Assembly (NCBI GenBank): GCA_017433295.1
Contig: JAFRHL010000006.1
Location: 1 to 64,000, forward strand
Length of the DNA: 64,000 nt
Origin: Eubacterium sp.
GTDB taxonomy: Bacteria > Bacillota > Clostridia > Lachnospirales > Lachnospiraceae
Direction of reading: 5' to 3'
This document shows positions 1-16,198 of this stretch, one piece after another (the first letter of the stretch is position 1; every line of letters starts with the position of its first letter). The notes beneath the pieces were generated by a model. It was not told where the DNA came from, searched no databases, and saw nothing but the letters and a program-made list of their open reading frames with translations. Both the position numbers and the translations under genes were made by a program.

Positions 1-967
1 AATATCTGTTATCCCGGATCTCGATTTCCCCCTCACTTACAAGATATTCCAGATGGGCCATGGCTTCACCCATGGCAAACCATTTCTGCTGCTTGGGAGC
101 ATCTTCCCATTTTTTTCCCCGCAGGGACCAGGTGAGAAGGCCCGCAACCTGATAAGCATTTATTCCGGGATGGTCTTTTAAAACAGATAAGACCTGATCC
201 AGCCTTTTTCGATGATGGTTCCTGATCTCCTGGATCCTGGTATATACGGTTTTATTACTTAGATTGCGATGACCCGGAAGGGCTGTTTTGATCTCGTAGC
301 GGGAAATTTTATCCAGATTATCCAGGTACTTTTGCAGACAGTTTTTTGTCAGAGGCCAGGTTACAATGTTGGGAGTAATGTCAAAAAGGATATGATCGCC
401 CAGAAACATGATTTTTTCATCTTCCAGATAAAAGCACATCTGGCCGGGGGTATGTCCCGCCACCTCGATTGCCTCAAAGGTCAGGTCCCCTATATGGATC
501 CGGTCCCCGTCCTTTAAAGTATGTACATGAAATTCCTTTGCGGGAGCATAGATGATGGCCGGATTCTCAAGCTTTGACTGGGCCAGCTCTTCCTCGGGCA
601 TACCCGCCTCAATGAAGATCCTGTCCTGTATCTCCCAGTATTCTCCGTGTATATGCATCCTGTAATAGTTGTATTCGGTTTCGCTCATGAAGATTTTGGA
701 ATCAGGATAATCAAAGTATTCTGCCAGGCCCATGTGGTCCGAATGGAGATGGGTCAGGAGGACATGGGTGTGTCTGGGTGAAATGTTAAGACTCAAAAGA
801 GCATCCATAAGGATCTGCCGGCATTCTTCCAGGTTAAATCCTGTATCTATGATCACACTTTCTTCTCCGCTTTTCATAATATAACAATTCAGATTCTTGA
901 GGGCGGTACCCGGCAGAGGAATACTTGCTTTATAGATGGTCGGAAACTCATGAATTATTTCTGTCAT
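1..967 (-). CDS. MBL-fold metallo-hydrolase, C-terminus beyond the window
   Basis: Reading from ATG at 967 down through position 1 gives 322 codons without a stop, so the gene runs off the left edge. The metallo-beta-lactamase zinc motif is visible as LLTHLHSDHMGL around residue 70 (HxHxDH), followed by a later histidine in VAGHTPGQM and an Asp in FLGDHILFD, the order expected for glyoxalase II-like hydrolases. A C-terminal winged-helix-like extension (DHPGINAYQVAGLL) resembles the one in MBL thioesterase/LACTB2-like proteins. No signal peptide or membrane segment is seen, so it is probably cytosolic. It is divergent from the ydiB-type gene. A role in hydrolysing CoA or other thioesters of the neighbouring pathway is possible but is inference only. 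Confidence 0.8.
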   Translation of the reverse strand, partial: MTEIIHEFPTIYKASIPLPGTALKNLNCYIMKSGEESVIIDTGFNLEECRQILMDALLSLNISPRHTHVLLTHLHSDHMGLAEYFDYPDSKIFMSETEYNYYRMHIHGEYWEIQDRIFIEAGMPEEELAQSKLENPAIIYAPAKEFHVHTLKDGDRIHIGDLTFEAIEVAGHTPGQMCFYLEDEKIMFLGDHILFDITPNIVTWPLTKNCLQKYLDNLDKISRYEIKTALPGHRNLSNKTVYTRIQEIRNHHRKRLDQVLSVLKDHPGINAYQVAGLLTWSLRGKKWEDAPKQQKWFAMGEAMAHLEYLVSEGEIEIRDNRY

Positions 968-1152
968 TTATGTCATCCTTTCTCGAAAAAGGGTTTATTA
1001 TATCTATCAATCATTATACAGAAGTCTTTGCCGGCCATCCAATCATTTTTACTTTGGTCCGTTTTTTATCTCATCATAAAAAACTATAGGTTCAGCCGGG
1101 CTTTTGTCATGAAAAGCAATAGGAAAATAAACTGGTTTAGAGAATTAATGTC

Positions 1153-1181
1153 TGATACAATGAAATCAGAGATGATACAAA
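1153..1181 (+). promoter_or_regulatory. Possible extended -10 promoter for the ydiB-aroD genes
   Basis: In the 285-bp divergent gap there are two similar TGATACAA elements (1153-1161 TGATACAAT and 1173-1181 TGATACAAA), each fitting an extended -10 box (TGN-TANNNT). No good -35 box is found 17 bp upstream, so an activator may be needed. Nothing else is recognisable in 968-1252. Confidence 0.3.
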
Positions 1182-1252
1182 ACGCATCGGTAAATCATAG
1201 CTACACGATCACATGAGGAAAAGGAAGAAAAAGCAGAAAGGAGCATATGATC

Positions 1253-2131
1253 ATGGCAGAAAGAATTACAGGACATACTGAGCTTATAGGCCTGATGGCC
1301 TATCCCATCAGACATTCCAGTTCCCCCGCCATGCAGAACGAAGCTTTTGCAAAGATGGGCTTTGACTACGCTTATCTGGCCTTTGAGGTGGATGCCGATG
1401 AAATTGAAGATGCAGTAAAAGCGATCCGGACCCTGAAGATGAGGGGTTCTAATGTTTCCATGCCCAATAAAACCATAGTGGGGCAGTATCTGGACGAGCT
1501 TTCTCCGGCGACCAGGCTCTGTGGAGCAGTGAATACCATCGTCAATGACGGAGGGCATCTGACCGGACACATAACGGATGGGATCGGCTTTATGGCCTCT
1601 CTTAAGGACAATAACATCGATCCGGTCGGGAAAAAAATGACCATCTGCGGATGCGGCGGCGCGGCCACGGCCATTGAGATTCAGGCTGCTCTGGACGGTG
1701 TGGCGGAAATATCCATTTTTAACCTGAAGGATTCTTTCTGGGACCGGGGACTTGAAACGGTGGAAAAGATCAATAAAAACACCGGTGCCAGAGCAGCCCT
1801 TTATGATCTGTCGGATAAAGAGCTGCTGAAGAAGGAAATGGATTCCAGTTACCTGTTTGTCAACGGCACTGGTGCCGGAATGAAACCCCTTGAAGATGTT
1901 TCCGTGGTTCCGGACATCTCCTTCTTCCGCCCGGAACTTATTGTTGTGGACGTGCCTTATTCTCCGGCAGAGACTAAGATGAGAAAAATGGCCAAAGAGG
2001 CGGGCTGTAAGACCATGAACGGACTGGGAATGATGCTTTTCCAGGGCTCGGCGGCCTTTGAGCTCTGGACAGGAAAGCCCATGCCCATAGAATATATGAA
2101 GGATATCCTGCACATCTCCTATGATGATTAA
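1253..2131 (+). CDS. ydiB: Quinate/shikimate dehydrogenase, YdiB type
   Basis: Expected to catalyse NAD(P)-dependent oxidation/reduction of quinate or shikimate at C3, in the cytosol. The 292-residue protein follows E. coli YdiB closely from memory: LIGLMAYPIRHS near residue 11, VSMPNK with the catalytic Lys73, TDG with Asp109, the nucleotide-binding GCGGAA at 133-138, NGT..GMKPLE near 204 and LFQG near 262. Differences seen: the usual NTDG reads ITDG, and the NRR cofactor loop reads NLKD (157-160), which could change cofactor preference. ATG 1253 is preferred to ATG 1247 because the AAAGGAG at 1238-1243 lies 9 bp upstream of it rather than 3. The gene lies 86 bp before aroD, as ydiB does in E. 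coli. YdiB rather than biosynthetic AroE is favoured by the MAYPIRHS and SMPNK style. Confidence 0.88.
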   Translation: MAERITGHTELIGLMAYPIRHSSSPAMQNEAFAKMGFDYAYLAFEVDADEIEDAVKAIRTLKMRGSNVSMPNKTIVGQYLDELSPATRLCGAVNTIVNDGGHLTGHITDGIGFMASLKDNNIDPVGKKMTICGCGGAATAIEIQAALDGVAEISIFNLKDSFWDRGLETVEKINKNTGARAALYDLSDKELLKKEMDSSYLFVNGTGAGMKPLEDVSVVPDISFFRPELIVVDVPYSPAETKMRKMAKEAGCKTMNGLGMMLFQGSAAFELWTGKPMPIEYMKDILHISYDD

Positions 2132-2217
2132 AGACAGATCTTCGCAAACCGGCGGCCGGGCAGACATAAGCTGGCGCAGCCGCATTTAAGGATAAGCCGG
2201 AAGGAAAGGATAGTAAT

Positions 2218-2979
2218 ATGACTGTTGTAAAGGTAAGAAATACTGTAATTGGTGAGGGAATTCCAAAAATATGTGTACCCGTAGTGGGAGTCAGCAGGGA
2301 GGATATACTGGAACAGGCTGCCGGCCTTAAGGGTCTGCCGGTTGATCTGGTGGAGTGGAGAACTGACTGGTTTGAATCCGTATTGGACCGGGAGAAGCTT
2401 CTGGGTGTCTTAAAGGAGCTCAGGGAACTTCTGGAGGACACTCCTTTGCTGATGACCTTCCGTACCTCAAAGGAGGGGGGAGAAAAGGAAATTGACCCGG
2501 AAACCTATGCCCGGATCAACATGGAAGCGGCCCGTTCAGGCTATGTGGATCTCATTGATGTGGAAGCTTTTACCGGAGATGAAATCGTGGCTCATATTAT
2601 AGAAGAAGCCCATAAAGCAGGGGTGAAGGTGGTGGCTTCAAACCATGATTTTGATAAGACCCCCGGCAAAGAGGATATAGTGGGCCGTTTAAGAAAAATG
2701 CAGGAGCTGGGTGCCGATATCCCCAAGATTGCCGTAATGCCCCGGAGTAAAAAGGATGTTCTCACACTTCTGGCCGCCACAGAGGAAATGAGTTCAAAGT
2801 ATGCGGACCGTCCCATCATAACCATGTCCATGGCCGGAACCGGCGTCATCAGCCGCCTTTGCGGAGAGGTGTTCGGATCGGCCCTGACCTTTGGTGCTGC
2901 GGCAAAGGCTTCCGCTCCCGGACAGATGGGCGTGGAGGAACTTAATACAGTTCTTAAGTTACTGCATATGGCCTTGTGA
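2218..2979 (+). CDS. aroD: Type I 3-dehydroquinate dehydratase
   Basis: Interconverts 3-dehydroquinate and 3-dehydroshikimate through a Schiff base. The 253-residue protein has full family length, and the catalytic residues fall at the E. coli numbers: Glu86 (SKEGG), His143 (ASNHDFDKTP) and Lys170 (ADIPKIAVMP). The C-terminal lid FGAAAKASAPGQM is also present. A GGAAAGGA ribosome binding site precedes ATG 2218. It follows the YdiB-type dehydrogenase on the same strand and is probably cotranscribed with it, so the pair can convert quinate to dehydroquinate and dehydroshikimate to shikimate. No other shikimate-pathway gene is nearby, which argues for a catabolic rather than biosynthetic role; this last point is inference. 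Confidence 0.94.
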   Translation: MTVVKVRNTVIGEGIPKICVPVVGVSREDILEQAAGLKGLPVDLVEWRTDWFESVLDREKLLGVLKELRELLEDTPLLMTFRTSKEGGEKEIDPETYARINMEAARSGYVDLIDVEAFTGDEIVAHIIEEAHKAGVKVVASNHDFDKTPGKEDIVGRLRKMQELGADIPKIAVMPRSKKDVLTLLAATEEMSSKYADRPIITMSMAGTGVISRLCGEVFGSALTFGAAAKASAPGQMGVEELNTVLKLLHMAL

Positions 2980-3078
2980 TCGGTAAAAATGTGTTCTTTT
3001 ATCCTGTTTGTTACCCTGAACCTTTTTAATTTATAGTTTTTTGCTATGAATTGTGAAAAATGACAAGTAAGAAACGAT

Positions 3079-3107
3079 TTGTTGCATTTGCACTGTGCAA
3101 GTATAAT
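3079..3107 (+). promoter_or_regulatory. Sigma-A type promoter of the acyl-CoA dehydrogenase gene
   Basis: TTGTTG at 3079-3084, 17-bp spacer, TATAAT at 3102-3107. The start would be near 3114, leaving an untranslated leader of about 120 nt. The 256-bp gap 2980-3235 therefore looks like a new transcription unit rather than read-through only. Confidence 0.65.
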
Positions 3108-3153
3108 AGAATCAGTGATGAATCTATTCACTTACCATCTAATAATTAACAAA

Positions 3154-3211
3154 GCGACAGCCGGCATCTTGGACTCTTGTGATTTTCTCTGAAGCAGATG
3201 CCCGCGGTTGC
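3154..3211 (+). promoter_or_regulatory. Leader hairpin just upstream of the acyl-CoA dehydrogenase RBS
   Basis: Bases 3154-3169 pair with 3196-3211; the inner GGCATCT/AGATGCC block is perfect and 14 of 16 positions pair overall (one G-T). The loop is about 26 nt. There is no T-run after it, so it is not an ordinary terminator. It ends 11 nt before the AAGGAGG at 3223-3229. Protection of the mRNA 5' end or a binding site are both possible. Confidence 0.55.
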
Positions 3212-3235
3212 AAGTAGGGGAAAAGGAGGAACAAT

Positions 3236-4447
3236 ATGAAATTAACAGAACAGCAGTTTCAGGATTATTTAATTCAGATCCGTGAGTTAGCTGAAGGTCC
3301 TTTTGATGAGATGCAGAAAGAGATCGAGATTACTAACACATTCCCGCAGGAATTCTATGACACAGCAATTAAGAACGACCTCTATCGTTTCGCTCTTCCG
3401 GAAGAGTACGGCGGATTCGGATTAAGCGAAAAGCAGATCCTGATGGTTCAGGAAGAGTTCTCCCGCGGACCTGGTGGAATGCGTATGCACTTACATCATG
3501 CTGCTGACCTTGACTGGAGAATTCTTGATGACTTCGGAAGTGATGAGTTAAAAGCTCAGTACATGGACAAGTTCCAGGACAAGACAATCTATGTTAACTT
3601 CGCTCTGACAGAGAGAACCGGTGGTACAGGCGCTGACCTTCATACTATCGCTCTGAAAGATCCGGATGATCCTGATTACTACATCATCAATGGTGAGAAG
3701 ACTCTTATCTCCCATACAGACTGCTCCGACTTTACATACCTGATCGTAAAGACAGATCCGGATTCTGATAAGGATGAGTCTCTTTCCGCATTCTTCGTAG
3801 ATGTTAACACACCTGGATTTGAGATCATTCCGATGTCCCATATGATGGGCTGCCGTGGTGCAGGACATGCTGACCTTAAGTTCACAAACATGAGAGTTCA
3901 TAAGAAATTCATGCTTGGTAAAGAAGGACAGGGTCTTGAAGTAGCTATGCATTCTCTGGCTGTTTCCCGCGCTCATATTGCTGTTTCCAACCTTGGTATG
4001 GCTCAGCGTATGCTTGAGATGACAATCGCACGTTCTCATGACCGTGTAACATTCGGCAAACCTCTTTGCAAGAGACAGAAGATTCAGCAGGATATCGCAG
4101 ACATGGGCACAAAGATCAACGCTCTTCGTCTTATGATCTGGGATTTCGCTGAGGATTATGATGCAGGCAAGAACATCGATATGAAGGCTGCTATGTGCAA
4201 GCTCTTTTCCATCGACACAGTTCGTGAAGTATCTGACGCTATGCTTGAGATCTTCGGTGGTATCGGCTACTTCGAAGACAACAATGGCGTAAGAAGACCT
4301 GACGGATCCGACTATGGCCCGGTAGAACGTCTGTATCGTGACTGCCGTGCTATGTGGCTTGAGGAAGGTCCTCGTACCGTTCAGAGACTTACTGCTTTCC
4401 GTGGCCTTGACAAGTGTGGCGGACGTATCGAGTATATTCACAAATAA
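3236..4447 (+). CDS. Acyl-CoA dehydrogenase family flavoprotein (CaiA/YdiO-like)
   Basis: FAD-dependent oxidoreductase expected to oxidise an acyl-CoA or, in anaerobes, reduce an enoyl-CoA. The 403 residues cover the N-terminal helical domain, the beta domain (VNFALTERTGGTGAD near 119-133) and the C-terminal helical domain (RVTFGKPLCKRQKIQQDIADM). The general-base position is Glu377, in WLEEGPRTVQR, matching the YEGTSEIQR region of CaiA-like members. An insertion around RPDGSDYGPVERLYRD is unusual. Codons are strikingly rich in CGT, GCT and CTT, like glpK and nifJ here, which suggests high expression. No electron-transfer flavoprotein genes are nearby, so the electron partner is unknown. The CoA-transferase downstream should supply its thioester substrate. 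The substrate cannot be read from the sequence; a hydroaromatic acyl-CoA is suggested by ydiB-aroD. Confidence 0.85.
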   Translation: MKLTEQQFQDYLIQIRELAEGPFDEMQKEIEITNTFPQEFYDTAIKNDLYRFALPEEYGGFGLSEKQILMVQEEFSRGPGGMRMHLHHAADLDWRILDDFGSDELKAQYMDKFQDKTIYVNFALTERTGGTGADLHTIALKDPDDPDYYIINGEKTLISHTDCSDFTYLIVKTDPDSDKDESLSAFFVDVNTPGFEIIPMSHMMGCRGAGHADLKFTNMRVHKKFMLGKEGQGLEVAMHSLAVSRAHIAVSNLGMAQRMLEMTIARSHDRVTFGKPLCKRQKIQQDIADMGTKINALRLMIWDFAEDYDAGKNIDMKAAMCKLFSIDTVREVSDAMLEIFGGIGYFEDNNGVRRPDGSDYGPVERLYRDCRAMWLEEGPRTVQRLTAFRGLDKCGGRIEYIHK

Positions 4448-4488
4448 GATCTGCGTATTGAAAAGTATATGATGGAAGTGAGCATGAT

Positions 4489-4510
4489 GTGGTCCGGCCT
4501 GGCCGGATCA
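4489..4510 (+). promoter_or_regulatory. Intercistronic palindromic hairpin
   Basis: TCCGGCC-T-GGCCGGA at 4493-4507 is a perfect palindrome and extends by further pairs to about 4490-4510. There is no T-run. It lies 42 bp after the acyl-CoA dehydrogenase stop and may protect the 3' end of that message or cause partial termination. Confidence 0.5.
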
Positions 4511-4556
4511 GGCTCGAGTTTCCTGAATTATAGTTGGAAGTAGATAAAAAGAACAT

Positions 4557-4592
4557 TTACGTCCATTCTGAAGTGTTTCGGGATGGACGTAA
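4557..4592 (+). promoter_or_regulatory. Strong 16-bp hairpin directly upstream of the CoA-transferase RBS
   Basis: TTACGTCCATTCTGAA (4557-4572) pairs with 4577-4592 around a GTGT loop; the outer 10 bp are perfect and three inner pairs are G-T. It ends 10 nt before the GAAAGG ribosome binding site, copying the arrangement seen before the upstream gene. No T-run follows, so RNA processing or stability control is more likely than termination. Confidence 0.6.
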
Positions 4593-4617
4593 GTTATATC
4601 TGAAAGGAAATGTTGAT

Positions 4618-5838
4618 ATGAAACCATTAGAAGGCGTTAAAGTTGTTGACCTTACTACATTCCTTGCAGCTCCTACCTGTGCCCGCGTTCTTGGTGAATG
4701 GGGTGCCGATGTCATTAAGGTGGAGGCAGGAAAAGGTGATCCCGGACGTACTCAGGGCGCGGTATTTGGCATGCCCTATACAGATGAGGAAAACCTGGGA
4801 TTTGATATGTCCAATATGAATAAGAGATTCATGACGATCAACCTGAAGAACCCGAAGGGTATGGAGGTCATGGATAAGCTTCTTAAAGATGCTGATGTTT
4901 TCATTACCAATATCCGTTCCAAATCCTTAAAGAAGCTGTGGCTGGATTATGAAACAGTTTCTGAAAAGTATCCCCAGGTGATCTGGACCCAGTGCCTTGG
5001 CTATGGTGAAAAGGGACCGGAGAAGGACAGCGCGGGATTTGATGTTACCTGTTATATGGCTCGTGGTGGTGTATACGGAACCACTGTTAACAAGGGCAGT
5101 GCTCCCATGATCCCTACCAATGGTTTTGGTGATTTCCAGGTATCCCTTTGTCTGGCATCCGGTATCTGCGCGGCACTCTTTAACCGCAATCGTACCGGTA
5201 AGGGCGACAAGGTTACAGTAAGTCTCCATCATGCCGCTGTATTCTTCTTAAGTACCGGTATGGTATCCGCCCAGTATGGAAATCCCTATCCCAAGAGCCG
5301 TTTTGAAGTAATAGCTCCTACAAACAACGTATATCGTACAAAAGATGACAAGCTGCTGGCCATGTGTGCACCGGAGTATGACCGTGATTACAATAAAATC
5401 ATGAAACTGGTGGGCCGTGAGGACCTTATTGATAATCCGGATTACTGTAACTGTGACCGGATGAATGAGCTTGGAAAGAACCGTGAGGTTGTGGAAGCCT
5501 TAGACGGAGCCATCGCAAAGTTTGATCTTGCGGATATCATCAAGATCTTTAAGGATAATGATGTTCCATGCGAAAGATGTATGGAGCCCAATGACATCTA
5601 TGAAGATGAGCAGGTATGGGCCAATGAGGTTATGACCAAGCTTGACTGTCCTTCCGGAAAGAGAAATATTCCGACCAATCCGGTTAAGTTCGGAAGCTTT
5701 AAGCCTGATTTTAAGGTGACCAGAGCCCAGGGTTCCGATACAGAGGAAATCTTAAAGGAACTCGGATATGATGATGGCCAGATCGCTGAGTATATTGCAG
5801 AGGGCGCTGTGCAGGGCAAGAAGGCTCTGGGACAGTAA
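4618..5838 (+). CDS. Class III (CaiB/BaiF/Frc family) acyl-CoA transferase
   Basis: Moves CoA between carboxylic acids through a glutamyl/aspartyl-CoA intermediate, here presumably activating the substrate of the acyl-CoA dehydrogenase. With start ATG 4618 (GAAAGG site at 4602-4607) the protein has 406 residues and begins at the family N-terminus, MKPLEGVKVVDLTTF. The longer frame from TTG 4534 would read through the hairpin and has no good RBS. The probable catalytic residue is Asp172 in GFGDF, equivalent to Asp169 of formyl-CoA transferase; the following RTGKGDKVTVSL is the usual sequence. Full length, no membrane segments, cytosolic. It is 28 bp upstream of a TctC-type binding protein, so uptake and activation are probably one operon. 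E. coli uses the unrelated class I enzyme YdiF at the matching place. Confidence 0.9.
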   Translation: MKPLEGVKVVDLTTFLAAPTCARVLGEWGADVIKVEAGKGDPGRTQGAVFGMPYTDEENLGFDMSNMNKRFMTINLKNPKGMEVMDKLLKDADVFITNIRSKSLKKLWLDYETVSEKYPQVIWTQCLGYGEKGPEKDSAGFDVTCYMARGGVYGTTVNKGSAPMIPTNGFGDFQVSLCLASGICAALFNRNRTGKGDKVTVSLHHAAVFFLSTGMVSAQYGNPYPKSRFEVIAPTNNVYRTKDDKLLAMCAPEYDRDYNKIMKLVGREDLIDNPDYCNCDRMNELGKNREVVEALDGAIAKFDLADIIKIFKDNDVPCERCMEPNDIYEDEQVWANEVMTKLDCPSGKRNIPTNPVKFGSFKPDFKVTRAQGSDTEEILKELGYDDGQIAEYIAEGAVQGKKALGQ

Positions 5839-5865
5839 GCTCATACATAGTTGGGAGTTGATTTC

Positions 5866-6906
5866 GTGAAGAATTATACAAAGGTAATCATCGCGATTCT
5901 GTTCGTCGTGAGTACCATTGTGGCGGGAAACGAGATCTATAAGGTGATACACTCCTACACCGCAGAATATCCGGATAATAATATCAACGGCTATGTGGCC
6001 TGGGGGGCAGGCGGGCCCACCGATACGGTGAGCCGCGCCCTGGCTGTCTATGCGGCTGAAGAGCTTCATACCAATATTATCATCCAGAATAAAACCGGTG
6101 CTACGGGAAGCGTGGCAACAGAGTTTGTAAAGAGACAGGATGCCAATGGATATTCCATTCTTTTTAATTCGGAGAATCCCCCATTATATAAGGTAATGGG
6201 TATCTCCGCCATCGATTATGATGATTTCTATCCTGTCATCATTGCGGGACAGCAGACGGCAGTTCTGGTTGTTGCGCCGGATTCCAAATACAATACCATC
6301 GAGGAACTGTTTGCGGATGCCGATGCCAGGCCGGGCAAGATCAACCTTGCCACCACCGGTGCCGGAGGTCTGACTTCCAATGTGGCTGCCATGCTGGAGG
6401 CCACCAGCAAGGTGAAGTTTAACCAGGTCCCCTATGATGGTGATTCTGCTGTATTGACAGCCATTATTGGTGGGAATGCAGATGTAACGATTGTTAATTA
6501 TTCTTCCGCCGTAGATTATGTTGCGGACGGAAAAGTTAAAATTTTAACGGTCTTTTCTGATGAGAGACTGGCAGGTGAGCCTGACAGTCCCACCATCTGC
6601 GAATCCTACCCGGAATACAAGGATTATTTCCCGTGGGGAACCTTTGTGGGTGTATTTGTTGACAAAGACTGTCCGGACAAGGTAAAAGAAACCCTGTCTG
6701 CCGCCTTCAGGAAGGGCTGGGAGAAGGAAGGTTTCCAGCAGTTCTTATCAGAGCATTACATCACACCTCTGGGTATCTCCGGAGACGAGGCCTCTGCCTA
6801 CATTAAAAAATGGCAGCAGACCACCTGCTGGATTCTTTATGAAGCCGGTCAGACCATGTATTCGCCGGAGGACTGCGGTATTCCGAGAGCGGGAGAGGAG
6901 GAATGA
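5866..6906 (+). CDS. tctC: TctC/Bug-type solute-binding protein of a tripartite tricarboxylate transporter
   Basis: Extracytoplasmic receptor for a carboxylate. GTG 5866 is chosen because GGGAG lies 8 bp upstream; this gives 346 residues. A single N-terminal hydrophobic stretch (about residues 5-20) has no lipobox Cys, so the protein is anchored by an uncleaved helix or released after signal peptidase I cleavage. Family hallmarks seen are GYVAWGAGGPTDTVSR near residue 40, the QNKTGATGSVATEFV carboxylate-binding loop, and NLATTGAGGLTSN. The real substrate cannot be read. It is followed directly by tctB and tctA with gaps of 3 and 14 bp, making a complete TTT system linked to the CoA-transferase. 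Confidence 0.88.
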   Translation: MKNYTKVIIAILFVVSTIVAGNEIYKVIHSYTAEYPDNNINGYVAWGAGGPTDTVSRALAVYAAEELHTNIIIQNKTGATGSVATEFVKRQDANGYSILFNSENPPLYKVMGISAIDYDDFYPVIIAGQQTAVLVVAPDSKYNTIEELFADADARPGKINLATTGAGGLTSNVAAMLEATSKVKFNQVPYDGDSAVLTAIIGGNADVTIVNYSSAVDYVADGKVKILTVFSDERLAGEPDSPTICESYPEYKDYFPWGTFVGVFVDKDCPDKVKETLSAAFRKGWEKEGFQQFLSEHYITPLGISGDEASAYIKKWQQTTCWILYEAGQTMYSPEDCGIPRAGEEE

Positions 6907-6909
6907 TCT

Positions 6910-7335
6910 ATGAAAGGTGAAAAGAATTTCAGCTATATTATTCTTGCTCTGTCTGTTCTGTTTCTTATAGGTTCATTAACGATCCTGCCATTTAAAGAGA
7001 TCACCATTACATCACCTGCAGGCTATGCCATCTTCATGTCCATCCTGTGCGTGATCGTAAGCTGTGTGATCGTTTTCGGTAAAAAGTTTGAGACGGACAT
7101 AGATGATTCAAAGCATGTGTTTGACTCCACCATCGTGGCTTTCATCCTCATGCTGATCCTGTATGTTGCCGCCATCATGTTCCTTCATTATACAATTGCG
7201 ACGCTGTTGTTTATATTTGCCGCTGTCTTCTATCTGAGAAGGGACAGCTTTAAGCAGGCAGTGCTGATCTCTTATATCAGTACCTTTATGATCCTGCTGG
7301 TATTTAAATATATCTTCAGTGTCATCATGCCCTAA
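6910..7335 (+). CDS. tctB: TctB-type small membrane subunit
   Basis: A 141-residue protein with four hydrophobic segments (roughly 9-27, 37-57, 75-97 and 101-138), the size and layout of the small poorly conserved TctB subunit of tripartite tricarboxylate transporters. The long C-terminal hydrophobic region is broken by YLRRDSFKQA. Position between tctC and tctA is the main support. A GAGGAGG-like RBS overlaps the end of tctC. Confidence 0.85.
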   Translation: MKGEKNFSYIILALSVLFLIGSLTILPFKEITITSPAGYAIFMSILCVIVSCVIVFGKKFETDIDDSKHVFDSTIVAFILMLILYVAAIMFLHYTIATLLFIFAAVFYLRRDSFKQAVLISYISTFMILLVFKYIFSVIMP

Positions 7336-7349
7336 AGGAGACCAAAGCT

Positions 7350-8801
7350 ATGACAGTTATTTTGTACAAAATTCTATTTGTGGCCCTTGGTGTCTTTGCG
7401 GGAATCTATGTAGGAGCGATACCGGGATTATCCGTAACCATGGCTGCCTCCCTGCTGATCTCCATGACCTACAGCTGGCAGGTGGACAATGCCCTGGCCC
7501 TGATGATGGGAGTCTGGGTAGGCGGAGTTTACGGCGGATCCCGCGCGGCGATCCTTCTTAATATTCCCGGGGCCCCGGCAGCGGTGGCTACCACCTTTGA
7601 CGGTTATCCCCTGGCACAGAAGGGTGAGGCAGGAAAGGCCATTGCGGTCAGCACCATCATGTCTGTTCTGGGCGGTATGTTTGGTCTTGTGATCATGCTG
7701 ATCGCCGCCCCCTATATTTCAAAAGTAGCAGTAAAGTTCAGCCCCAAGGATTATCTGCTCCTGCTCTTAATGGGCCTTATGCTGGTGGGCAGTCTTGGAG
7801 GCAAATCGGTCTGGAAGGGAATCCTCACTGCCCTCATCGGCCTTATGCTGGCCGTAGTGGGTACAGACCCCATTACCGGACTCAACCGTTTTACCTTCGG
7901 TATCTCTGATATGAGAACCGGTCTGAGCTATATCAGTGTTATGATCGGTATGTTCGGTATCGGTGAAGCCCTCTTCCAGCTTCTCCACAGAGACCGTCCC
8001 ATTGTTAAACAGGATGTCTTAAAGATCCGGCCACCTAAGGAAGTCCTGATCAGGATGCTTCCCTTAAGTCTTCGCAGTGGTCTGGTGGGAACCGTAGTAG
8101 GTGCCCTGCCGGGAGCCGGCGGCGACCTGGCAGCATTATTATCCTACGACTTTGCCAAGAGGACCGTGAAGAATCCGGAAGTGCCCTTTGGAGAAGGAGC
8201 CTATGAGGGAATCGTAGCTCCCGAATCAGCCAACAACGCGGCTGTCGGCGGCGCTTTGATCCCCATGCTGACCCTGGGTATTCCGGGAGACTCCGTCACA
8301 GCCATCATGATCGGAGCTTTGTCCATACATAATATCAAGGCCGGCCCCACACTGATGAGTACCATGCCCGAGATTTTCAGCAATCTGGCCTGGCTGCTTC
8401 TGGCAGCCAATATCTTCCTGCTGATCTTCGGCCTTACCGGCATCAGGATCTTCAGTAAGCTGGTGGAGCTGCCAAGAGAGATCCTCATGCCGCTGATCAT
8501 GGTCATATCAGTTATAGGAAGTTATTCCATCGGCGGCAATGTGATCGATATTGTGTGGACCGTGGTATTCGGTATCATCGGATATTTTATGAAGTGCTTT
8601 GACTATCCGGTGGGACCTCTGGTTCTGGGACTGATCCTGGGACCCAATCTGGAGCTTTATTTCCGCAGAGCCATCATGAGCGCGGGATCTGTGGGCGGAA
8701 TGTTTGTGGACATCTTCACAAGTCCCTTCTCCCTTGTCCTGGTGGTACTGCTTGCATTAATGATCGTTTCTCAGGTCAGAATGTCAAAACCGGAGAAATG
8801 A
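7350..8801 (+). CDS. tctA: TctA-type large permease subunit
   Basis: The 483-residue polytopic membrane protein has the two internal repeats of the TctA family: GAIPGLSVTMAASLLISMTY near residue 24 and GALPGAGGDLAALLSYDFAK near 253, each carrying the PG(L/A) motif. About 11-12 hydrophobic segments can be counted. Other family sequences are NIPGAPAAVATTFDGYPLA and LGIPGDSVTAIMIGAL. Normal length. It should carry the acid bound by TctC, driven by an ion gradient. An AAAGGAG site precedes ATG 7350. The 113-bp gap after it holds an AT-rich hairpin (ATGTAT/ATACAT, 8815-8830) that is too weak to call a terminator. Confidence 0.93.
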   Translation: MTVILYKILFVALGVFAGIYVGAIPGLSVTMAASLLISMTYSWQVDNALALMMGVWVGGVYGGSRAAILLNIPGAPAAVATTFDGYPLAQKGEAGKAIAVSTIMSVLGGMFGLVIMLIAAPYISKVAVKFSPKDYLLLLLMGLMLVGSLGGKSVWKGILTALIGLMLAVVGTDPITGLNRFTFGISDMRTGLSYISVMIGMFGIGEALFQLLHRDRPIVKQDVLKIRPPKEVLIRMLPLSLRSGLVGTVVGALPGAGGDLAALLSYDFAKRTVKNPEVPFGEGAYEGIVAPESANNAAVGGALIPMLTLGIPGDSVTAIMIGALSIHNIKAGPTLMSTMPEIFSNLAWLLLAANIFLLIFGLTGIRIFSKLVELPREILMPLIMVISVIGSYSIGGNVIDIVWTVVFGIIGYFMKCFDYPVGPLVLGLILGPNLELYFRRAIMSAGSVGGMFVDIFTSPFSLVLVVLLALMIVSQVRMSKPEK

Positions 8802-8914
8802 CAGAATGTATTTTTATACATTTATAATAAGAATAATTGTATATACGGGTGGAGATTACGGCGTCCGTTATATAATTATATAAAAAACATTTTTTTAAGA
8901 AAGGAAACAAATCA

Positions 8915-10240
8915 ATGAGAGCGAAAAAGTATTTCTTAACACTCGCTGTTGTATACCTTGCTTATTTTACACATGGTATGCAGGCTATTTTGCTTTCCCA
9001 GAATAACGTGCACTTTGCGGCCCAGTGGGGATTTAACATGTCTGATCCCGCATCTGAGGCTTATGCGGCAGGTATTGCTGCTGTTGCCAGTGTTATCGCT
9101 TATACTGGTTTAGCTAAGTTCCTCACAGTATGGATCTGTGGTGAGATTTCCGATAAGATCGGCCGTAAGATCATGGTTATGATCGGTGCCATCATGTATG
9201 TAGCTGCTTTCTTCGGATGTCTTTATACCCACAGTATCACCGTAGCGAAAGTTTGTGCATTCTTAATGGGTGCTGCCACATCCTTCTTTGATGGTTCTCT
9301 TTATGCAGCAGCTCAGGAATCCTGGATCAAAGCTCCGGGTGCAGCAACTATCCTCATCAAAGGATTTATCTCCATCTCCGGTATGGCATACCCGATCCTG
9401 GTTGCATCCCTCGGTGCTCAGGGCGGAGACGCATGGAAGATGGGTATCTTCTTCCCCGCAATCTGCGCAGTAGTTCTCTGTGTCATTGCCTTCATTGCTC
9501 CCTATTCCTACGACGAAGAGCTCAAGGAAAGGAAAGCTTCCGGTGTTGTTGAGAAGAAGGAGAAAGGTGCTCTCGATGCAGACGCTCAGTTAGCAGCAGA
9601 CCGTTTCAAGGTTCCTGCTCCCAAGTGGCTGGTAGTTCCGCTGGCTCTTATGGGATTTATCAACATGTCCACCATGTATTCTGCTCAGCAGTTCTTAAAG
9701 ACATACGGTATGGAGTACTGTGGTCTTACTGAGATGAAGGCAGCTTCCATGTCTTCCCTGTACACATTTGGTTCTCTTGCAGCCGTTATCATCTGGGCTA
9801 TCGCTCTTGCAGCCCTCCGCTGGAGAACTCTTAAAGTGCTGGTAATCGACCTTTGTGGTTCTATCTGCTGTTATGCACTTGCCGTACTTGCTACCAATAC
9901 AGCTCTGATCATGCTTGCCTGCGTAGGTATCGGTTTCTTCGCTGCCGGCGGTGCTCTTCAGTGTGGTGTTACTCTTATTCAGGAATTCCATCCCGGTCCT
10001 AAAGGCCGTAACCTTGGTATTTACTATACCTTCATGGGTCTTTCCGGATATGTAATGCCTTTGATCTCCGGAGCTCTTACTGCTTCTCACGGAGCCGGCC
10101 AGGGTGCCAGATTATCTCTTGGAATCAACCTGATCTTCGCAGCCGTAGGTCTTGCCTTCTGTCTGTATCTGGTTGCAAATTACAAGAAGTGGTTTGGTGT
10201 AACAGCCTTCTCCAAGAAGGGACCGGACGACATCTATTAA
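8915..10240 (+). CDS. MFS transporter of the YdiN/YdiM type
   Basis: A 441-residue, 12-segment major facilitator. From memory it matches E. coli YdiN at several blocks: YLAYFTHGMQAILLSQNN (N-terminus), EISDKIGRKIMVMIGAIMY (loop 2-3 signature) and GIGFFAAGGALQCGV near helix 10. A long charged loop (about 200-230, KERKASGVVEKKEKGALDAD) separates the two six-helix halves. YdiN/YdiM flank ydiB in E. coli, so this carrier likely moves a quinate/shikimate-like substrate or its end product; that is inference. Codon usage is CGT/GCT rich, suggesting high expression. A TATAAT-like box lies at 8871-8876 but no -35 is clear, so the promoter may need an activator. A terminator follows, closing the island. 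Confidence 0.88.
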   Translation: MRAKKYFLTLAVVYLAYFTHGMQAILLSQNNVHFAAQWGFNMSDPASEAYAAGIAAVASVIAYTGLAKFLTVWICGEISDKIGRKIMVMIGAIMYVAAFFGCLYTHSITVAKVCAFLMGAATSFFDGSLYAAAQESWIKAPGAATILIKGFISISGMAYPILVASLGAQGGDAWKMGIFFPAICAVVLCVIAFIAPYSYDEELKERKASGVVEKKEKGALDADAQLAADRFKVPAPKWLVVPLALMGFINMSTMYSAQQFLKTYGMEYCGLTEMKAASMSSLYTFGSLAAVIIWAIALAALRWRTLKVLVIDLCGSICCYALAVLATNTALIMLACVGIGFFAAGGALQCGVTLIQEFHPGPKGRNLGIYYTFMGLSGYVMPLISGALTASHGAGQGARLSLGINLIFAAVGLAFCLYLVANYKKWFGVTAFSKKGPDDIY

Positions 10241-10312
10241 TCTTTAAAAAGTAATCTTTAAAAGCATAAAAGAACCATGCTTTTGAAAAGATGACATAAT
10301 ACTCCTTTTTAA

Positions 10313-10366
10313 TCCCTCCGGGCAGTTCCTGTTTCAGTACAGGGGCAGTCGGGAGGGGTTTTTTAT
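10313..10366 (+). terminator. Rho-independent terminator after the MFS gene
   Basis: CCCTCC (10314-10319) pairs with GGGAGG near 10351, with an inner CCTGT/ACAGG stem, followed by GGGGTTTTTTATTT. It closes the acyl-CoA/transport island. Confidence 0.85.
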
Positions 10367-10427
10367 TTATAAGTCCAGTCGCAATACAGGGACATCGGAC
10401 CGCTTACGTACTTTGTTTATTAACCTG

Positions 10428-10456
10428 TTGATTTGAAATATGAAAAGTAGTAAAAT
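10428..10456 (+). promoter_or_regulatory. Promoter of the cupin gene
   Basis: TTGATT at 10428-10433, 17-bp spacer, TAAAAT at 10451-10456; the start would be near 10463, about 35 nt before the cupin ATG. Confidence 0.55.
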
Positions 10457-10497
10457 AAGGAGAAAACCATTAAAGAAAGAATTGAGGAGGTATTCAT

Positions 10498-10842
10498 ATG
10501 GTAAGAAAACCGATTCTTGAGATCAGAGAAGGTATAGGAAACGGAAAGGGTCCTGCCCGGCTGTATCATATTGTTCCTAAGGAAGATCTGTATGGGCATG
10601 GACGGATGTATGCCAAGGTTGAACTGCCAGCTGGGTCCAATATAGGCTGGCATCAGCATGTGGGGGAGACAGAGCCTTACTTTATTCTGGAGGGTGAGGG
10701 AATCTTTACTGATAATGACGGAACTAAGACCCATGTATTCCCCGGGGATGTATGCACTATCCTTCCGGGTCATTATCATTCCCTGGATAATGCGTCAGAG
10801 ACAGAGCCCCTTGTATTAATGGCTTTGATTTATAATGACTAA
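10498..10842 (+). CDS. Small single-domain cupin protein
   Basis: A 114-residue cupin barrel. The first cupin motif reads GWHQHVGETEPYFILEGEG (His pair plus Glu metal ligands) and the second PGDVCTILPGHYHSLDN (His). Such proteins bind a divalent metal and a small ligand; members include isomerases, dioxygenases and sensors, so no reaction can be assigned. GAGGAGGT precedes ATG 10498. It has its own promoter and lies outside the preceding operon, though a sugar- or acid-related role near the ydi-like island is possible. Confidence 0.85.
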   Translation: MVRKPILEIREGIGNGKGPARLYHIVPKEDLYGHGRMYAKVELPAGSNIGWHQHVGETEPYFILEGEGIFTDNDGTKTHVFPGDVCTILPGHYHSLDNASETEPLVLMALIYND

Positions 10843-10900
10843 GGAGATTCCGGTTGAATAACCTGAAGAACCCGATTGAGAAAAAAGCAGGAGAAAAGCT

Positions 10901-12346
10901 TTGCAGAAAAAGAAAAAAACAAAAATAAACAGGGGAGCAGGAGGAAAAAAGACCTTAAGCCTTTCTGACAAAAGCCTGAGATATATATGCCTTGCCTTTC
11001 TTCTGCTCCTGTTGTTTTTCTATATAAGAGGCTTTCTGTATTATAGAAATCACTTTCACAGAAATACTTATATCAACGGCGTGTCCATGAAGGGAAAGAC
11101 TGTGGAGGAGGCAGAGAGGTATTTTAATGAGGATTTTGCTTCCCATGATATAAAGCTTGTGGAAAAGGAGAGGACAGAAACCATCAGGGCCAGGGAGGTT
11201 GTGGAGGAGATATCCACCAATGGGCAGGTTCAGAAGATTTTTAACAGACTTCATGCCTGGAACTGGTTTACAGATCTTTTTGGCAAAGAAAAGTATACGG
11301 TGACCCTTGAGGCAGATTATGATGAAGCCAGACTTCGAACCATCGTTAACGGTCTTGACTGTTTCAAACCGTCAAATGTCACTGAACCCCGGGATGCTCA
11401 TATTGTGCCGGGGAAAAAAGCCTATAAGATCGTTCCGGAGGTAATCGGCAATCAGGTGGACAAGGAGGGACTTTTAAAGAGTCTTGAGACTGCCATCAGC
11501 CAGAATATCACAAAGATCGATCTTGAGAAAGAAGATCTTTATGTGCTGCCCCGGGTCTATGCAAAGGATAAGGCTATCAAGAAAGCTCTTAAAGAGGCGA
11601 ATAAGTATGCTCTCTCGCAGGTCATCTATGATTTCAACAGAAAAACAGAGACCGTAGATTACGCCCTTTTTAAAGACTGGATCGTCTTTTCAGAGGACCT
11701 TAAAGTATCTGTGGATGAGGATAAGATATCAGAGTACATTCTCGGCCTTGCCGCAAAGTACAACACCATGGGAAGGGCACATCATTTCAAGACCTCATCA
11801 GGAAAGATCATCCGGATCGATGATGGGGATTACGGGTGGAAGGTCGATACGAAAAAGGAGAAGAAACAACTGGCTTCGGATATACAATCCGGAAAAAAGA
11901 TAAGCCGGAAACCTTTTTATTCCTATGAAGCCATGGGTTATTATTCCAAAGTCGATGATATAGGGAATTCCTATGTGGAGGTTGACATCCGCAGCCAGAA
12001 GCTCTGGCTCTATATCAATGGCAGATGCAAGATGAGGTCGGCGGTAGTTACCGGAGATGTGAAGAGACATTATGACACGGAGAAGGGGGTTTACAGTATA
12101 ACCTATAAAGAGTCCCCGTCGACACTTACCGGTGTCAATTCCAACGGAAGCGCCTATTCCTCGGATGTGAAATACTGGATGCCCTTTAACGGCAACCAGG
12201 GACTGCATGATGCTCCCTGGCGCATGACCTTTGGCGGCTCTGAATACGAAGGGAACGGTTCCCACGGCTGTGTAAACTGTCCTGTAAAGACCGCGAAGGT
12301 TCTTTATGATAATGTAAAGGCAGGTTTTCCGGTGGTGATTTACTGA
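10901..12346 (+). CDS. Membrane-anchored L,D-transpeptidase (YkuD domain)
   Basis: Cross-links or modifies peptidoglycan by a cysteine transpeptidase mechanism outside the cell. The 481-residue protein has a basic cytosolic tail, one transmembrane helix at about 30-46, a long extracellular region with two putative peptidoglycan-binding repeats (about 55-340), and a C-terminal YkuD domain. The catalytic motif is SHGCVNC with Cys457; the upstream histidine is in GLHDAPW. It starts at TTG 10901 with AGGAG 7 bp upstream. The layout matches the ErfK/YbiS/YcfS/YnhG group with a PG-binding-4 domain found in many Clostridia. It follows the cupin by 58 bp and may share its transcript. Confidence 0.9.
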   Translation: MQKKKKTKINRGAGGKKTLSLSDKSLRYICLAFLLLLLFFYIRGFLYYRNHFHRNTYINGVSMKGKTVEEAERYFNEDFASHDIKLVEKERTETIRAREVVEEISTNGQVQKIFNRLHAWNWFTDLFGKEKYTVTLEADYDEARLRTIVNGLDCFKPSNVTEPRDAHIVPGKKAYKIVPEVIGNQVDKEGLLKSLETAISQNITKIDLEKEDLYVLPRVYAKDKAIKKALKEANKYALSQVIYDFNRKTETVDYALFKDWIVFSEDLKVSVDEDKISEYILGLAAKYNTMGRAHHFKTSSGKIIRIDDGDYGWKVDTKKEKKQLASDIQSGKKISRKPFYSYEAMGYYSKVDDIGNSYVEVDIRSQKLWLYINGRCKMRSAVVTGDVKRHYDTEKGVYSITYKESPSTLTGVNSNGSAYSSDVKYWMPFNGNQGLHDAPWRMTFGGSEYEGNGSHGCVNCPVKTAKVLYDNVKAGFPVVIY

Positions 12347-12377
12347 TAAAAGATCGTCTGAGTGAGGTTATTTGAGG

Positions 12378-12947
12378 ATGAGTACAGATCATATGTCAGA
12401 AGAGCTGAAGCGCAGCCCGAGCGAAATCGCTGAAGCGGTTTCGATTGATAAGAAGGGAGGCAGGAGGCGTCCTATTCGCTCCAGGGTAAACAAGCTGGGG
12501 TCGGACGTCATTTCAACGCCTGAGTTTCGGGAAACCTATAACCGGAGACATCATTTAACTACCAGCGTGGCCAGACACAGCATCCGGGTAGCCGGAGTCT
12601 GTGTGGTTTTGTCTGCCGGTGCCGACGTTCTTGGAATCAAGGTGGACAGAAAACTGCTGATCGTTGCTGCCCTGTGCCATGATCTGGGTATGCTGAACAG
12701 GGATACTTACCGCACAGCCAGGGAGACATACCGTCAGCATCCGGTGGATGCGGTACCCATCATAGAAGAAAGTCTGGGTATCCATGATGAGAAGCTGAAT
12801 AATGCAGTGGAAGCTCATATGTATCCATTAAATGGTACCAGACCCAGGAGTAAAGAAGCGGTGATGCTTATCATTGCGGATAAAATAGGAAGCGTGATGG
12901 ACCTGTTTGCATTTGATCATATCCGGTCATCGGGGAAAGGATCATAA
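12378..12947 (+). CDS. HD-domain phosphohydrolase-like protein
   Basis: The 189-residue cytosolic protein carries an HD domain: His in SVARHSIRVAG, the HD doublet in ALCHDLGMLNRD, a later His in VEAHMYPLNG and Asp in IIADKIGSV. These are the metal ligands of nucleotide or phosphate-ester hydrolases; the substrate is unknown. ATG 12378 is preferred over TTG 12372 because GTGAGG lies 10 bp upstream. The N-terminal 30 residues are basic and disordered-looking and contain one copy of a dispersed DNA repeat (12421-12449), so the true start could be downstream, but no better start codon is visible. Confidence 0.75.
   Translation: MSTDHMSEELKRSPSEIAEAVSIDKKGGRRRPIRSRVNKLGSDVISTPEFRETYNRRHHLTTSVARHSIRVAGVCVVLSAGADVLGIKVDRKLLIVAALCHDLGMLNRDTYRTARETYRQHPVDAVPIIEESLGIHDEKLNNAVEAHMYPLNGTRPRSKEAVMLIIADKIGSVMDLFAFDHIRSSGKGS
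12421..12449. repeat. Dispersed repeat copy A (GCGAAATCGC / TTTCGATTGAT)
   Basis: GCGAAATCGC at 12421-12430 is followed by GCGGTTTCGATTGAT (12435-12449), forming an inverted repeat. The same TTTCGATTGAT core occurs at 35796, 46706 and, inverted, 60888; a related palindrome is at 17800. Confidence 0.5.
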
Positions 12948-12999
12948 CTAGATTATATTGGAATCATTTGATGGTAATAACATTTATAAGGAGAATATC

Positions 13000-15066: not shown

Positions 15067-15068
15067 CT

Positions 15069-15722
15069 ATGGCGTATTTTCCATTGTTTATAGATATAAA
15101 AGAGAAGAAATGTCTTGTAATCGGCGGAGGGAAGGTGGCTAAGAGAAAGGTGGATACCCTTCTCATGTATGATGCCCATGTGCATGTAGTCAGTCCGGAG
15201 ATCTGCCGGGAGATTCGGGAGGCGCTTGGCGGGGAGGTGCATGAAGGCTGTATCTGCCGGGAGGCGGTCCTGTCCCCCCCGGAGATGGAAGAGGAGATCC
15301 GGGAGTCGGTGCTGGTTGTCGCAGCAACGGGAAGCCGGGAAACCAATCACCAGGTCTCCGGGATCTGCCACAGGCTGGGGATACCGGTAAATGTAGTGGA
15401 TGCTCCCTTGGAATGCACCTTTCTTTTTCCGGCAGTGGTCAAAAAGGGAGAGATCAGTATCGGGATCAATACCGGAGGCTCCAGTCCTATTGTATCATCG
15501 GTTATCCGCCGGGAGACGGAAGAAAATGTTCCGGATTATTACGCGGATATCGCACTGCAGCTGGGAGAACTGAAAAGCAGACTTAAAAAGACTGTCCCGG
15601 AGGTTGCTCTGCGGCGGCATTATCTGAAAAAAGCAGCAGCCATGGCATTTATTGAGAGGAGAACACTGTATAAGGAAGAACTCCAGGAGATTTTGAAAGA
15701 AGAGACAGGAAATAAAACATGA
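15069..15722 (+). CDS. Precorrin-2 dehydrogenase/sirohydrochlorin ferrochelatase (Met8/CysG N-domain type)
   Basis: NAD-dependent oxidation of precorrin-2 to sirohydrochlorin, with possible metal chelation. The 217-residue protein opens with YFPLFIDIKEKKCLVIGGGK, a Rossmann GGGKVA motif, and continues with VVAATG, VNVVDAPLECTFLFPAV and GISTGGSSP-like sequence (GINTGGSSPIVSSVIR), all diagnostic. No SAM methyltransferase domain is attached. It starts 2 bp after cobQ and overlaps the GNAT gene by 4 bp, so translation is coupled. It supplies the siroheme/cobalamin branch. Confidence 0.93.
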   Translation: MAYFPLFIDIKEKKCLVIGGGKVAKRKVDTLLMYDAHVHVVSPEICREIREALGGEVHEGCICREAVLSPPEMEEEIRESVLVVAATGSRETNHQVSGICHRLGIPVNVVDAPLECTFLFPAVVKKGEISIGINTGGSSPIVSSVIRRETEENVPDYYADIALQLGELKSRLKKTVPEVALRRHYLKKAAAMAFIERRTLYKEELQEILKEETGNKT

Positions 15723-16138
15723 TTGAACTGGTTGAGGATAAGCTTGATATCGACACTTATCTCAGACTGAGGCATGCCGTAAACTTTCATCCCCTTACAA
15801 GGGACCAGGCAAGACGGGCTCTTGATAACAGTCTTTATACCCTGGTGGCTTTCAGGGACGGAAAGGCGGTGGGCATGGGCCGGATCGTGGGAGACGGAGC
15901 GGTGATCTGCTATGTGCAGGATCTGATCATTCTCCCGGAGGTCCAGGGACAGGGCATCGGCAGTCTGATACTTGAGACCTTAAAAAGCTTTGTAATGAAT
16001 ATCGGTTTTCCCGGCACCATGATGATGTTTGATCTGATGTGTGCCAGGGGCCGGGAAGAATTTTACCGGAAGCATGGATTTATTTCCCGCCCCACAGATA
16101 CCCTGGGACCGGGAATGATCCAGTATCTGGAATTATAG
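15719..16138 (+). CDS. GNAT family N-acetyltransferase
   Basis: A 139-residue acetyltransferase with the acetyl-CoA binding motif VQGQGIGSLIL near residue 80 and a C-terminal FYRKHGFISRP. Substrate unknown; the sequence style is that of small YitI/ElaA-like amine acetyltransferases. It overlaps the preceding gene by 4 bp (ATGA), so it is in the tetrapyrrole operon, but no functional link to that pathway is evident. Confidence 0.88.
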   Translation: MIELVEDKLDIDTYLRLRHAVNFHPLTRDQARRALDNSLYTLVAFRDGKAVGMGRIVGDGAVICYVQDLIILPEVQGQGIGSLILETLKSFVMNIGFPGTMMMFDLMCARGREEFYRKHGFISRPTDTLGPGMIQYLEL

Positions 16139-16198
16139 TCAGTATGCTGCTTTCGGGCGGTATTACATAAAGCACATTACTGTGAGGAGGTATTTATC

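What the first reader, a model, noticed from the sequence alone, without database searches (positions are those of the whole stretch)
1253..10240. Hydroaromatic acyl-CoA island resembling the E. coli ydi region
YdiB-type dehydrogenase, AroD, acyl-CoA dehydrogenase, a CoA-transferase and a YdiN/YdiM-type MFS carrier occur together, as in the E. coli ydiN-ydiB-aroD-ydiF-ydiO region, although the CoA-transferase is class III instead of class I and a TctCBA transporter is added. The shared gene set in distant phyla suggests a common pathway: quinate/shikimate are taken up, interconverted, activated to a CoA thioester and reduced or dehydrogenated. That would be anaerobic use of hydroaromatic plant acids, perhaps as electron sinks or towards cyclohexene/benzoate-type acids. 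The seen part is gene content and motifs; the pathway is inference.
Basis: partly seen in the sequence, partly recalled or inferred. Interest (0 to 1): 0.72.

Follow-up and report, generated by a model that had tools for sequence, protein, structure and literature searches.

The report
Gut-bacterial quinate/shikimate CoA-redox island
A block of genes that recurs in anaerobic bacteria from different phyla looks built to take up plant acids such as quinate and shikimate, attach them to coenzyme A and use the ring as a place to put (or draw) electrons; it resembles a poorly understood stretch of the E. coli chromosome, but what it really makes is untested.

Summary
Window 1247-10240 (+) encodes a YdiB-clade shikimate/quinate dehydrogenase (SDH), type I AroD, an acyl-CoA dehydrogenase (ACAD1), a class III CoA-transferase, TctCBA and an MFS carrier distantly like YdiM/YdiN. 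Two Oscillospiraceae-type loci hold these families side by side (Etf not seen); Halanaerobium salsuginis has a similar contiguous set plus a second SDH and an AroQ elsewhere. P194 is a superoxide-reductase relative with an invariant CX4CX2CX3C and, outside Halanaerobium, no iron-site motif; in 299 same-family genomes it occurs in exactly the 6 with ACAD1. Best reading: an anaerobic CoA-recycling redox pathway for quinate/shikimate, working like Cai/Car. Against or open: 33 of 39 other ACAD1 places lack a clear SDH nearby; here SDH/AroD may also serve biosynthesis; YdiO and YdiF are not orthologous; direction and product are inferred.

The parts
2..967 (-). MBL-fold hydrolase (PF00753), divergent neighbour; possible member only
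   Evidence: Pfam; an MBL gene lies near ACAD1 in 5 of 40 fetched places at 36-39% identity
1247..2131 (+). SDH-A: YdiB-clade shikimate/quinate dehydrogenase (start may be 1253)
   Evidence: tree
2218..2979 (+). AroD: type I 3-dehydroquinate dehydratase
   Evidence: only DHQ dehydratase found in the genome
3236..4447 (+). ACAD1: acyl-CoA dehydrogenase family with the catalytic Glu kept and its own conserved motifs
   Evidence: 62-97% identical relatives in Bacillota and Actinomycetota
4534..5838 (+). class III (CaiB/BaiF-type) CoA-transferase (true start may be downstream of the TTG)
   Evidence: near ACAD1 in 35 of 40 fetched places
5851..6906 (+). TctC solute-binding protein
   Evidence: PF03401
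6910..7335 (+). TctB small membrane subunit
   Evidence: PF07331
7350..8801 (+). TctA large membrane subunit
   Evidence: PF01970
8915..10240 (+). MFS carrier, best E. coli ydi matches YdiM/YdiN (29-30%)
   Evidence: near ACAD1 in 16 of 40 fetched places

Best explanation
The window holds half of an accessory, probably horizontally spread island for the anaerobic redox conversion of hydroaromatic plant acids; the other half is on contig C45 of the same genome. Proposed working: the MFS and Tct carriers take up quinate/shikimate; SDH-A and AroD interconvert quinate, 3-dehydroquinate, 3-dehydroshikimate and shikimate (enzyme families shown, substrates inferred); the FadK-clade ligase primes the cycle with ATP and the class III CoA-transferase then hands CoA from the outgoing product to the incoming acid (inferred from Cai/Car-type systems); ACAD1 and ACAD2, with EtfBA, exchange electrons at the ring carbons next to the thioester, and the Old Yellow Enzyme acts on the enone form (inferred). 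No thiolase was found and no ring-opening set was noticed, so the C7 ring is probably excreted rather than used as carbon. I think net reduction (an electron sink, towards dihydroshikimate or more deoxygenated cyclohexane carboxylates) is the likelier direction. P194 is probably a metal-binding partner of ACAD1. LysR is the likely regulator.
For: Families. C45 order EtfA end-SDH2-OYE-ACAD2-ligase-P194-LysR. One contiguous locus (L014; also L013) holds Tct, OYE, ACAD2, ACAD1, CoA-T, MFS, SDH-A, AroD, SDH-B, LysR, P194, ligase; H. salsuginis holds ACAD1-CoA-T-ACAD2-EtfBA-FadK-LysR-P194-OYE-LysR-SDH-YdiM-AroD plus a TRAP carrier, with a second, AroE-like SDH and an AroQ on another contig, so its island SDH/AroD look dispensable for biosynthesis. 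SDH tree: window with H. salsuginis and L013/L014 island SDHs 100/99, then G168 SDHs that sit in OYE-SDH-YdiM modules, then E. coli YdiB 94/94. E. coli FadK falls with the island ligases, apart from CaiC, FadD, EntE; a Sporomusa termitida plasmid island has a ligase 55% identical to E. coli FadK near ACAD1-P194-ACAD2-EtfBA. Catalytic Glu kept in ACAD1. P194-ACAD1: 6 of 6 versus 0 of 293 genomes. With one query sequence each, no thiolase in the fetched islands and a crotonase only in the two Slackia loci L017/L018.
Against: SDH/AroD accompany only a minority of ACAD1 places; six of the eight genomes (G168, G421, G434, G497, G505, G549) have their SDHs away from ACAD1. In this genome SDH/AroD may be housekeeping. 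The Sporomusa island shows UbiD, SDR and ADH and no annotated SDH/AroD, so the core may serve other ring acids. No thioester of shikimate or quinate, no activity and no expression was shown. ACAD homology does not tell reduction from oxidation.
Confidence: 0.5

Rival explanations
1. The island runs towards the aromatic ring: shikimate-type acids are activated, dehydrated and dehydrogenated by the two ACADs to benzoate or hydroxybenzoates (then sometimes decarboxylated).
For: Shikimate to benzoate + 3 H2O needs only 2 H, to protocatechuate releases 2 H. UbiD decarboxylase in the Sporomusa island. Two ACADs as in cyclohexanecarboxylate/benzoate routes (recalled).
Against: Neither ACAD reached the cyclohexanecarbonyl-CoA dehydrogenase cut-off (178.2 and 318.8 versus 650 bits). 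Catalytic Glu kept in ACAD1, whereas the 1,4-eliminating cyclohexene-CoA enzyme lacks it (recalled).
Confidence: 0.2
2. SDH and AroD are just the aromatic-biosynthesis pair of this organism, lying by accident beside an enoate-CoA reductase cluster for another acid.
For: One AroD, no AroQ, two SDHs (the other on C45) and a chorismate synthase in the genome; aroD of the E. coli ydi region is likewise annotated as a 3-dehydroquinate dehydratase and is the biosynthetic one (recalled). Most ACAD1 places lack the pair.
Against: An AroE-like SDH and an AroQ elsewhere in H. salsuginis, which has the same island; the pair recurs near ACAD1 in four lineages, the window's included; the SDH is of the YdiB clade. 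Dual use would not exclude the pathway.
Confidence: 0.15
3. The core is a hydroxycinnamate (caffeate-like) reductase; SDH/AroD handle the quinate half of chlorogenic acid.
For: Ligase + CoA-transferase + ACAD + EtfBA is the plan of caffeate respiration (recalled); CarC 6fah is among the matches of ACAD1 and ACAD2.
Against: No esterase was noticed among the genes scanned (not searched for as such); an Old Yellow Enzyme and two SDHs are not needed; ACAD1 forms its own tight family.
Confidence: 0.12
4. It is a medium-chain fatty acid system, as the name FadK suggests.
For: The ligase scores 648.9 bits on NCBIfam's medium-chain fatty-acid--CoA ligase model PRK06087, cut-off 736.
Against: No thiolase, crotonase only in 2 Slackia loci (one query each); SDH/AroD/OYE unexplained.
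Confidence: 0.03

Closest known systems
E. coli K-12 ydiM-ydiN-ydiB-aroD-ydiF-ydiO-ydiP-ydiQRST-fadK region
   Same: YdiB-clade SDH, AroD, MFS, FadK-clade ligase, Etf and an ACAD plus a CoA-transferase in the neighbourhood; matches to all four of YdiQRST near ACAD1 in Curtanaerobium (40-54%) and Cellulomonas citrea (29-45%), to three in Hugonella
   Different: CoA-transferase of another class, ACAD not orthologous to YdiO (28%); no OYE, P194 or Tct gene in the E. coli stretch read; regulator LysR here, YdiP not matched
E. coli cai operon + fix (crotonobetaine reduction)
   Same: ACAD, CaiB-type CoA-transferase, ligase, fixA next door
   Different: 24-29% ACAD, 22% CoA-T, 25% ligase identity; no CaiD-like hydratase in window 1-16000 or C45; SDH, AroD, OYE added
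Caffeate respiration (CarABCDE, Acetobacterium woodii; recalled)
   Same: ligase, CoA-transferase, ACAD, EtfBA
   Different: class of CoA-transferase (recalled), two ACADs, hydroaromatic enzymes
Thn enzymes of anaerobic naphthalene degradation (PMC11659651, abstract and outline seen)
   Same: CoA-transferase and ACADs acting on cyclohexane carboxyl-CoA acids
   Different: family I CoA-transferase, intramolecular transfer, other substrate
Bile acid 7-dehydroxylation (bai; recalled)
   Same: CoA ligase, class III CoA-T, MFS, BaiCD-like OYE (448.1 bits, cut-off 825)
   Different: OYE below the cut-off; ACADs and shikimate enzymes instead of steroid ones
Superoxide reductase / desulfoferrodoxin (for P194)
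   Different: iron-site motif HPMxxxH only in the Halanaerobium copy (1 of 21 rows; 2 of 33 with its duplicate); invariant tetra-Cys motif added

Membership tests
E. coli ydi-type island | YdiB-clade quinate/shikimate dehydrogenase | tested here: met
   48% identity; tree support 94/94
E. coli ydi-type island | AroD beside it | tested here: met
E. coli ydi-type island | FadK-clade ligase | tested here: met
   on C45, not in the window; 38% to FadK, groups with it (three outgroup ligases only, long branches)
E. coli ydi-type island | YdiM/YdiN orthologue | tested here: inconclusive
   29-30% identity, no NCBIfam cut-off met
E. coli ydi-type island | class I CoA-transferase YdiF | tested here: not met
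   class III, PF02515; YdiF has no BLASTP match
E. coli ydi-type island | YdiO orthologue | tested here: not met
   28-29%; PRK12341 169 of 537 bits; the column of the catalytic Glu reads Gly in YdiO
E. coli ydi-type island | YdiQR/YdiST electron transfer | tested here: inconclusive
   only a 47-residue EtfA end on C45
Cai/Car-type CoA-recycling enoate reductase | ACAD + CoA-transferase + ligase + Etf together | tested here: met
   (split over two contigs here, in one stretch in relatives such as L044, L050-L054, L056)
Cai/Car-type CoA-recycling enoate reductase | reduction of an enoyl-CoA coupled to CoA transfer | not testable with these tools
   needs enzyme assays
Cyclohexanecarboxylate degradation (cyclohexane-1-carbonyl-CoA dehydrogenase) | equivalog NF043006 / TIGR03207 | tested here: not met
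   ACAD1 178.2 and 129.3, ACAD2 318.8 and 172.1; cut-offs 650 and 575.35
Biosynthetic AroE/AroD pair | only copies in a genome with the chorismate pathway | tested here: inconclusive
   single AroD, no AroQ, chorismate synthase present; assembly 91% complete; second SDH on C45
Superoxide reductase (P194) | His/Cys iron site (site recalled; tested by the motif HPMxxxH) | tested here: not met
   motif in 1 of 21 aligned rows, only in the H. salsuginis copy

The most novel reading that the evidence does not exclude
This island is the missing genetic basis of the long-known (recalled) microbial conversion of quinate/shikimate to cyclohexane carboxylates or benzoate in rumen and gut, built on CoA thioesters, two ACADs, an Old Yellow Enzyme and a superoxide-reductase-derived metalloprotein; the E. 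coli ydi-fadK region is a cousin, so FadK is at heart a ligase for cyclic acids.
Probability: 0.3. Interest if true: 0.82.

Novelty: new variant of a known kind. Interest (0 to 1): 0.66.

Why it matters
Quinate, free or in chlorogenic acid, is a common plant acid, and its microbial conversion feeds host benzoate and hippurate (recalled). Genes for an anaerobic, CoA-linked route did not show in the listings of the ten full-text searches made here. The island gives testable candidates, would explain why ydiB-aroD sits with acyl-CoA genes in E. coli, and names a marker pair (ACAD1 + P194) for finding it in metagenomes.

Tried and rejected
Orthology of ACAD1/ACAD2 with YdiO: rejected (28-29%, different conserved active-site columns). 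Fatty-acid oxidation: rejected for lack of thiolase and, mostly, crotonase (one query sequence each, so remote homologues could be missed). Physical linkage of C45 and the window contig: no overlap and no shared 15-mers between the two sequences; linkage rests on gene content of relatives only, and in the near relative L007 LysR and the MBL gene lie in other orientations. Promoter/terminator scan of 900-11000: 11 promoter-like sites against 17.1 in shuffles, 13 terminator-like against 9.0; no use. The cupin gene at 10498 and the genes after it: no sign that they belong. A first binomial used 8 of 41; replaced by 7 of 40 and 6 of 40, because the H. salsuginis SDH lies 12 kb from ACAD1, outside a 20-kb stretch. 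The 40 are the 39 distinct places plus the window. L011's divergent SDH and L026's SDH fragment were not counted as SDH. Literature: ten searches, listings only, except PMC11659651 (abstract, outline) and PMC4585142 (passages); none of what I saw described this island, but subscription papers are mostly missing from the library. Family scans of the MBL gene gave no function. The Foldseek 'pdb' search was not run; VIA-align was. The second structure job was not used, so ACAD1 was not modelled.
Full report
OBSERVATION. The SDH's best solved match by sequence is a shikimate dehydrogenase, 3tnl, then quinate/shikimate dehydrogenases including YdiB. E. coli's ydi region was read directly and compared.

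THE OTHER HALF. The own genome (2.9 Mb, 56 contigs, 91% complete) has a second SDH, 45% identical, and a second ACAD, 32% identical, on one 8-kb contig, C45; a further ACAD (31%) lies on C44 and was not pursued. C45 reads: EtfA C-terminus (47 aa, 64% identical to the island EtfA of H. salsuginis), SDH2, Old Yellow Enzyme (best NCBIfam model BaiCD, 448.1 bits, below its cut-off of 825), ACAD2, AMP ligase (medium-chain fatty-acid--CoA ligase model PRK06087, which I recall as the FadK model, 648.9 bits, cut-off 736; next-best 332.4), P194, LysR.

RELATIVES. A scan of genome contigs with ACAD1 gave 33 loci; searches of 391 class, 299 family and 398 phylum genomes (the samples share some genomes) found it in 2, 6 and 2, the own genome counted each time, so it is rare and scattered. 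In 40 fetched places, window not among them and the H. salsuginis place counted twice, the companions by tblastn are: CoA-transferase 35, P194 32 (33 by profile), ligase 30, LysR 28, ACAD2 19, MFS 16, Tct 6, SDH 5, AroD 4, OYE 4. H. salsuginis adds SDH and AroD further along its contig, making 6 and 5 of 39 distinct places. Several places are cut by contig ends. L013 and L014 hold the window and C45 families (Etf not detected) in one stretch. In the ACAD1 tree H. salsuginis groups with Cellulomonas and two other Actinomycetota (100/98, root drawn at the midpoint), and Bacillota and Actinomycetota each need two changes; that is compatible with transfer but does not prove it.

SDH AND FADK TREES. 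The window SDH groups with the island SDHs of H. salsuginis and L013/L014 (100/99), next to SDHs of genome G168 that sit in two OYE-SDH-YdiM-like modules, and with E. coli YdiB (94/94). E. coli FadK falls with the island ligases, apart from CaiC, FadD and EntE (long outgroup branches). A Sporomusa termitida plasmid carries ACAD1-P194-LysR-MFS-MFS-SDR-ADH-CaiB-UbiD-ACAD2-EtfBA-FadK-CoA-T, its FadK 55% identical to E. coli's.

ACAD1. 171 positions are at least 95% conserved in 43 sequences from two phyla, with the catalytic Glu (EEG; its role is recalled) and motifs GPGGMRMHLH and SHTDC that ACAD2 lacks. By analogy with MCAD (recalled) the first motif lies in the acyl pocket, which would suit a polar ring; this was not modelled.

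MECHANISM. Shown: families, neighbourhoods, conservation. Inferred: substrates, thioester formation, direction. Formula balance: shikimate to dihydroshikimate takes 2 H, to cyclohexanecarboxylate 8 H, to benzoate 2 H; to protocatechuate gives 2 H. With one query sequence each, no thiolase was found in the fetched places and a crotonase only in two Slackia loci, against use of the ring as carbon by ordinary beta-oxidation; ring-cleavage enzymes and esterases were not searched for. I favour reduction as electron sink because of the likeness to Cai/Car systems and the OYE; aromatisation remains open.

LIMITS. Most ACAD1 places lack SDH/AroD, so the core may act on shikimate itself or on other ring acids. 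In the own genome the pair may also serve biosynthesis, as aroD does in E. coli (recalled). A review's passages report that ydiB, aroD and ydiN rise together in a shikimate-producing E. coli under carbon limitation and that YdiN was proposed as a carrier (PMC4585142, passages), which fits but is not proof.

Noticed in passing
window 12958-15066 (+): CobQ-like cobyric acid synthase fused to a BtuR/CobO corrinoid adenosyltransferase in one frame.
   Followed up: partly
window 15069-17173 (+): NAD-binding protein of the siroheme type (by recall), GNAT acetyltransferase and ALAD follow, a tetrapyrrole block.
   Followed up: no
L040:6440-7045 and relatives: P194, a superoxide-reductase-derived family with an invariant tetra-Cys motif; the own copy has no Pfam match.
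   Followed up: partly
L073 (G168) 596-10292: Two tandem copies of an OYE-SDH-YdiM-like module, about 1.8 Mb from the ACAD1 island of that genome.
   Followed up: partly
L096 (Sporomusa termitida plasmid pSPTER): Plasmid-borne version of the island with UbiD decarboxylase, SDR and ADH.
   Followed up: partly
L030/L031 (Pelosinus): ACAD1-P194 followed by a 4Fe-4S/CCG protein, without CoA-transferase or ligase detected.
   Followed up: no
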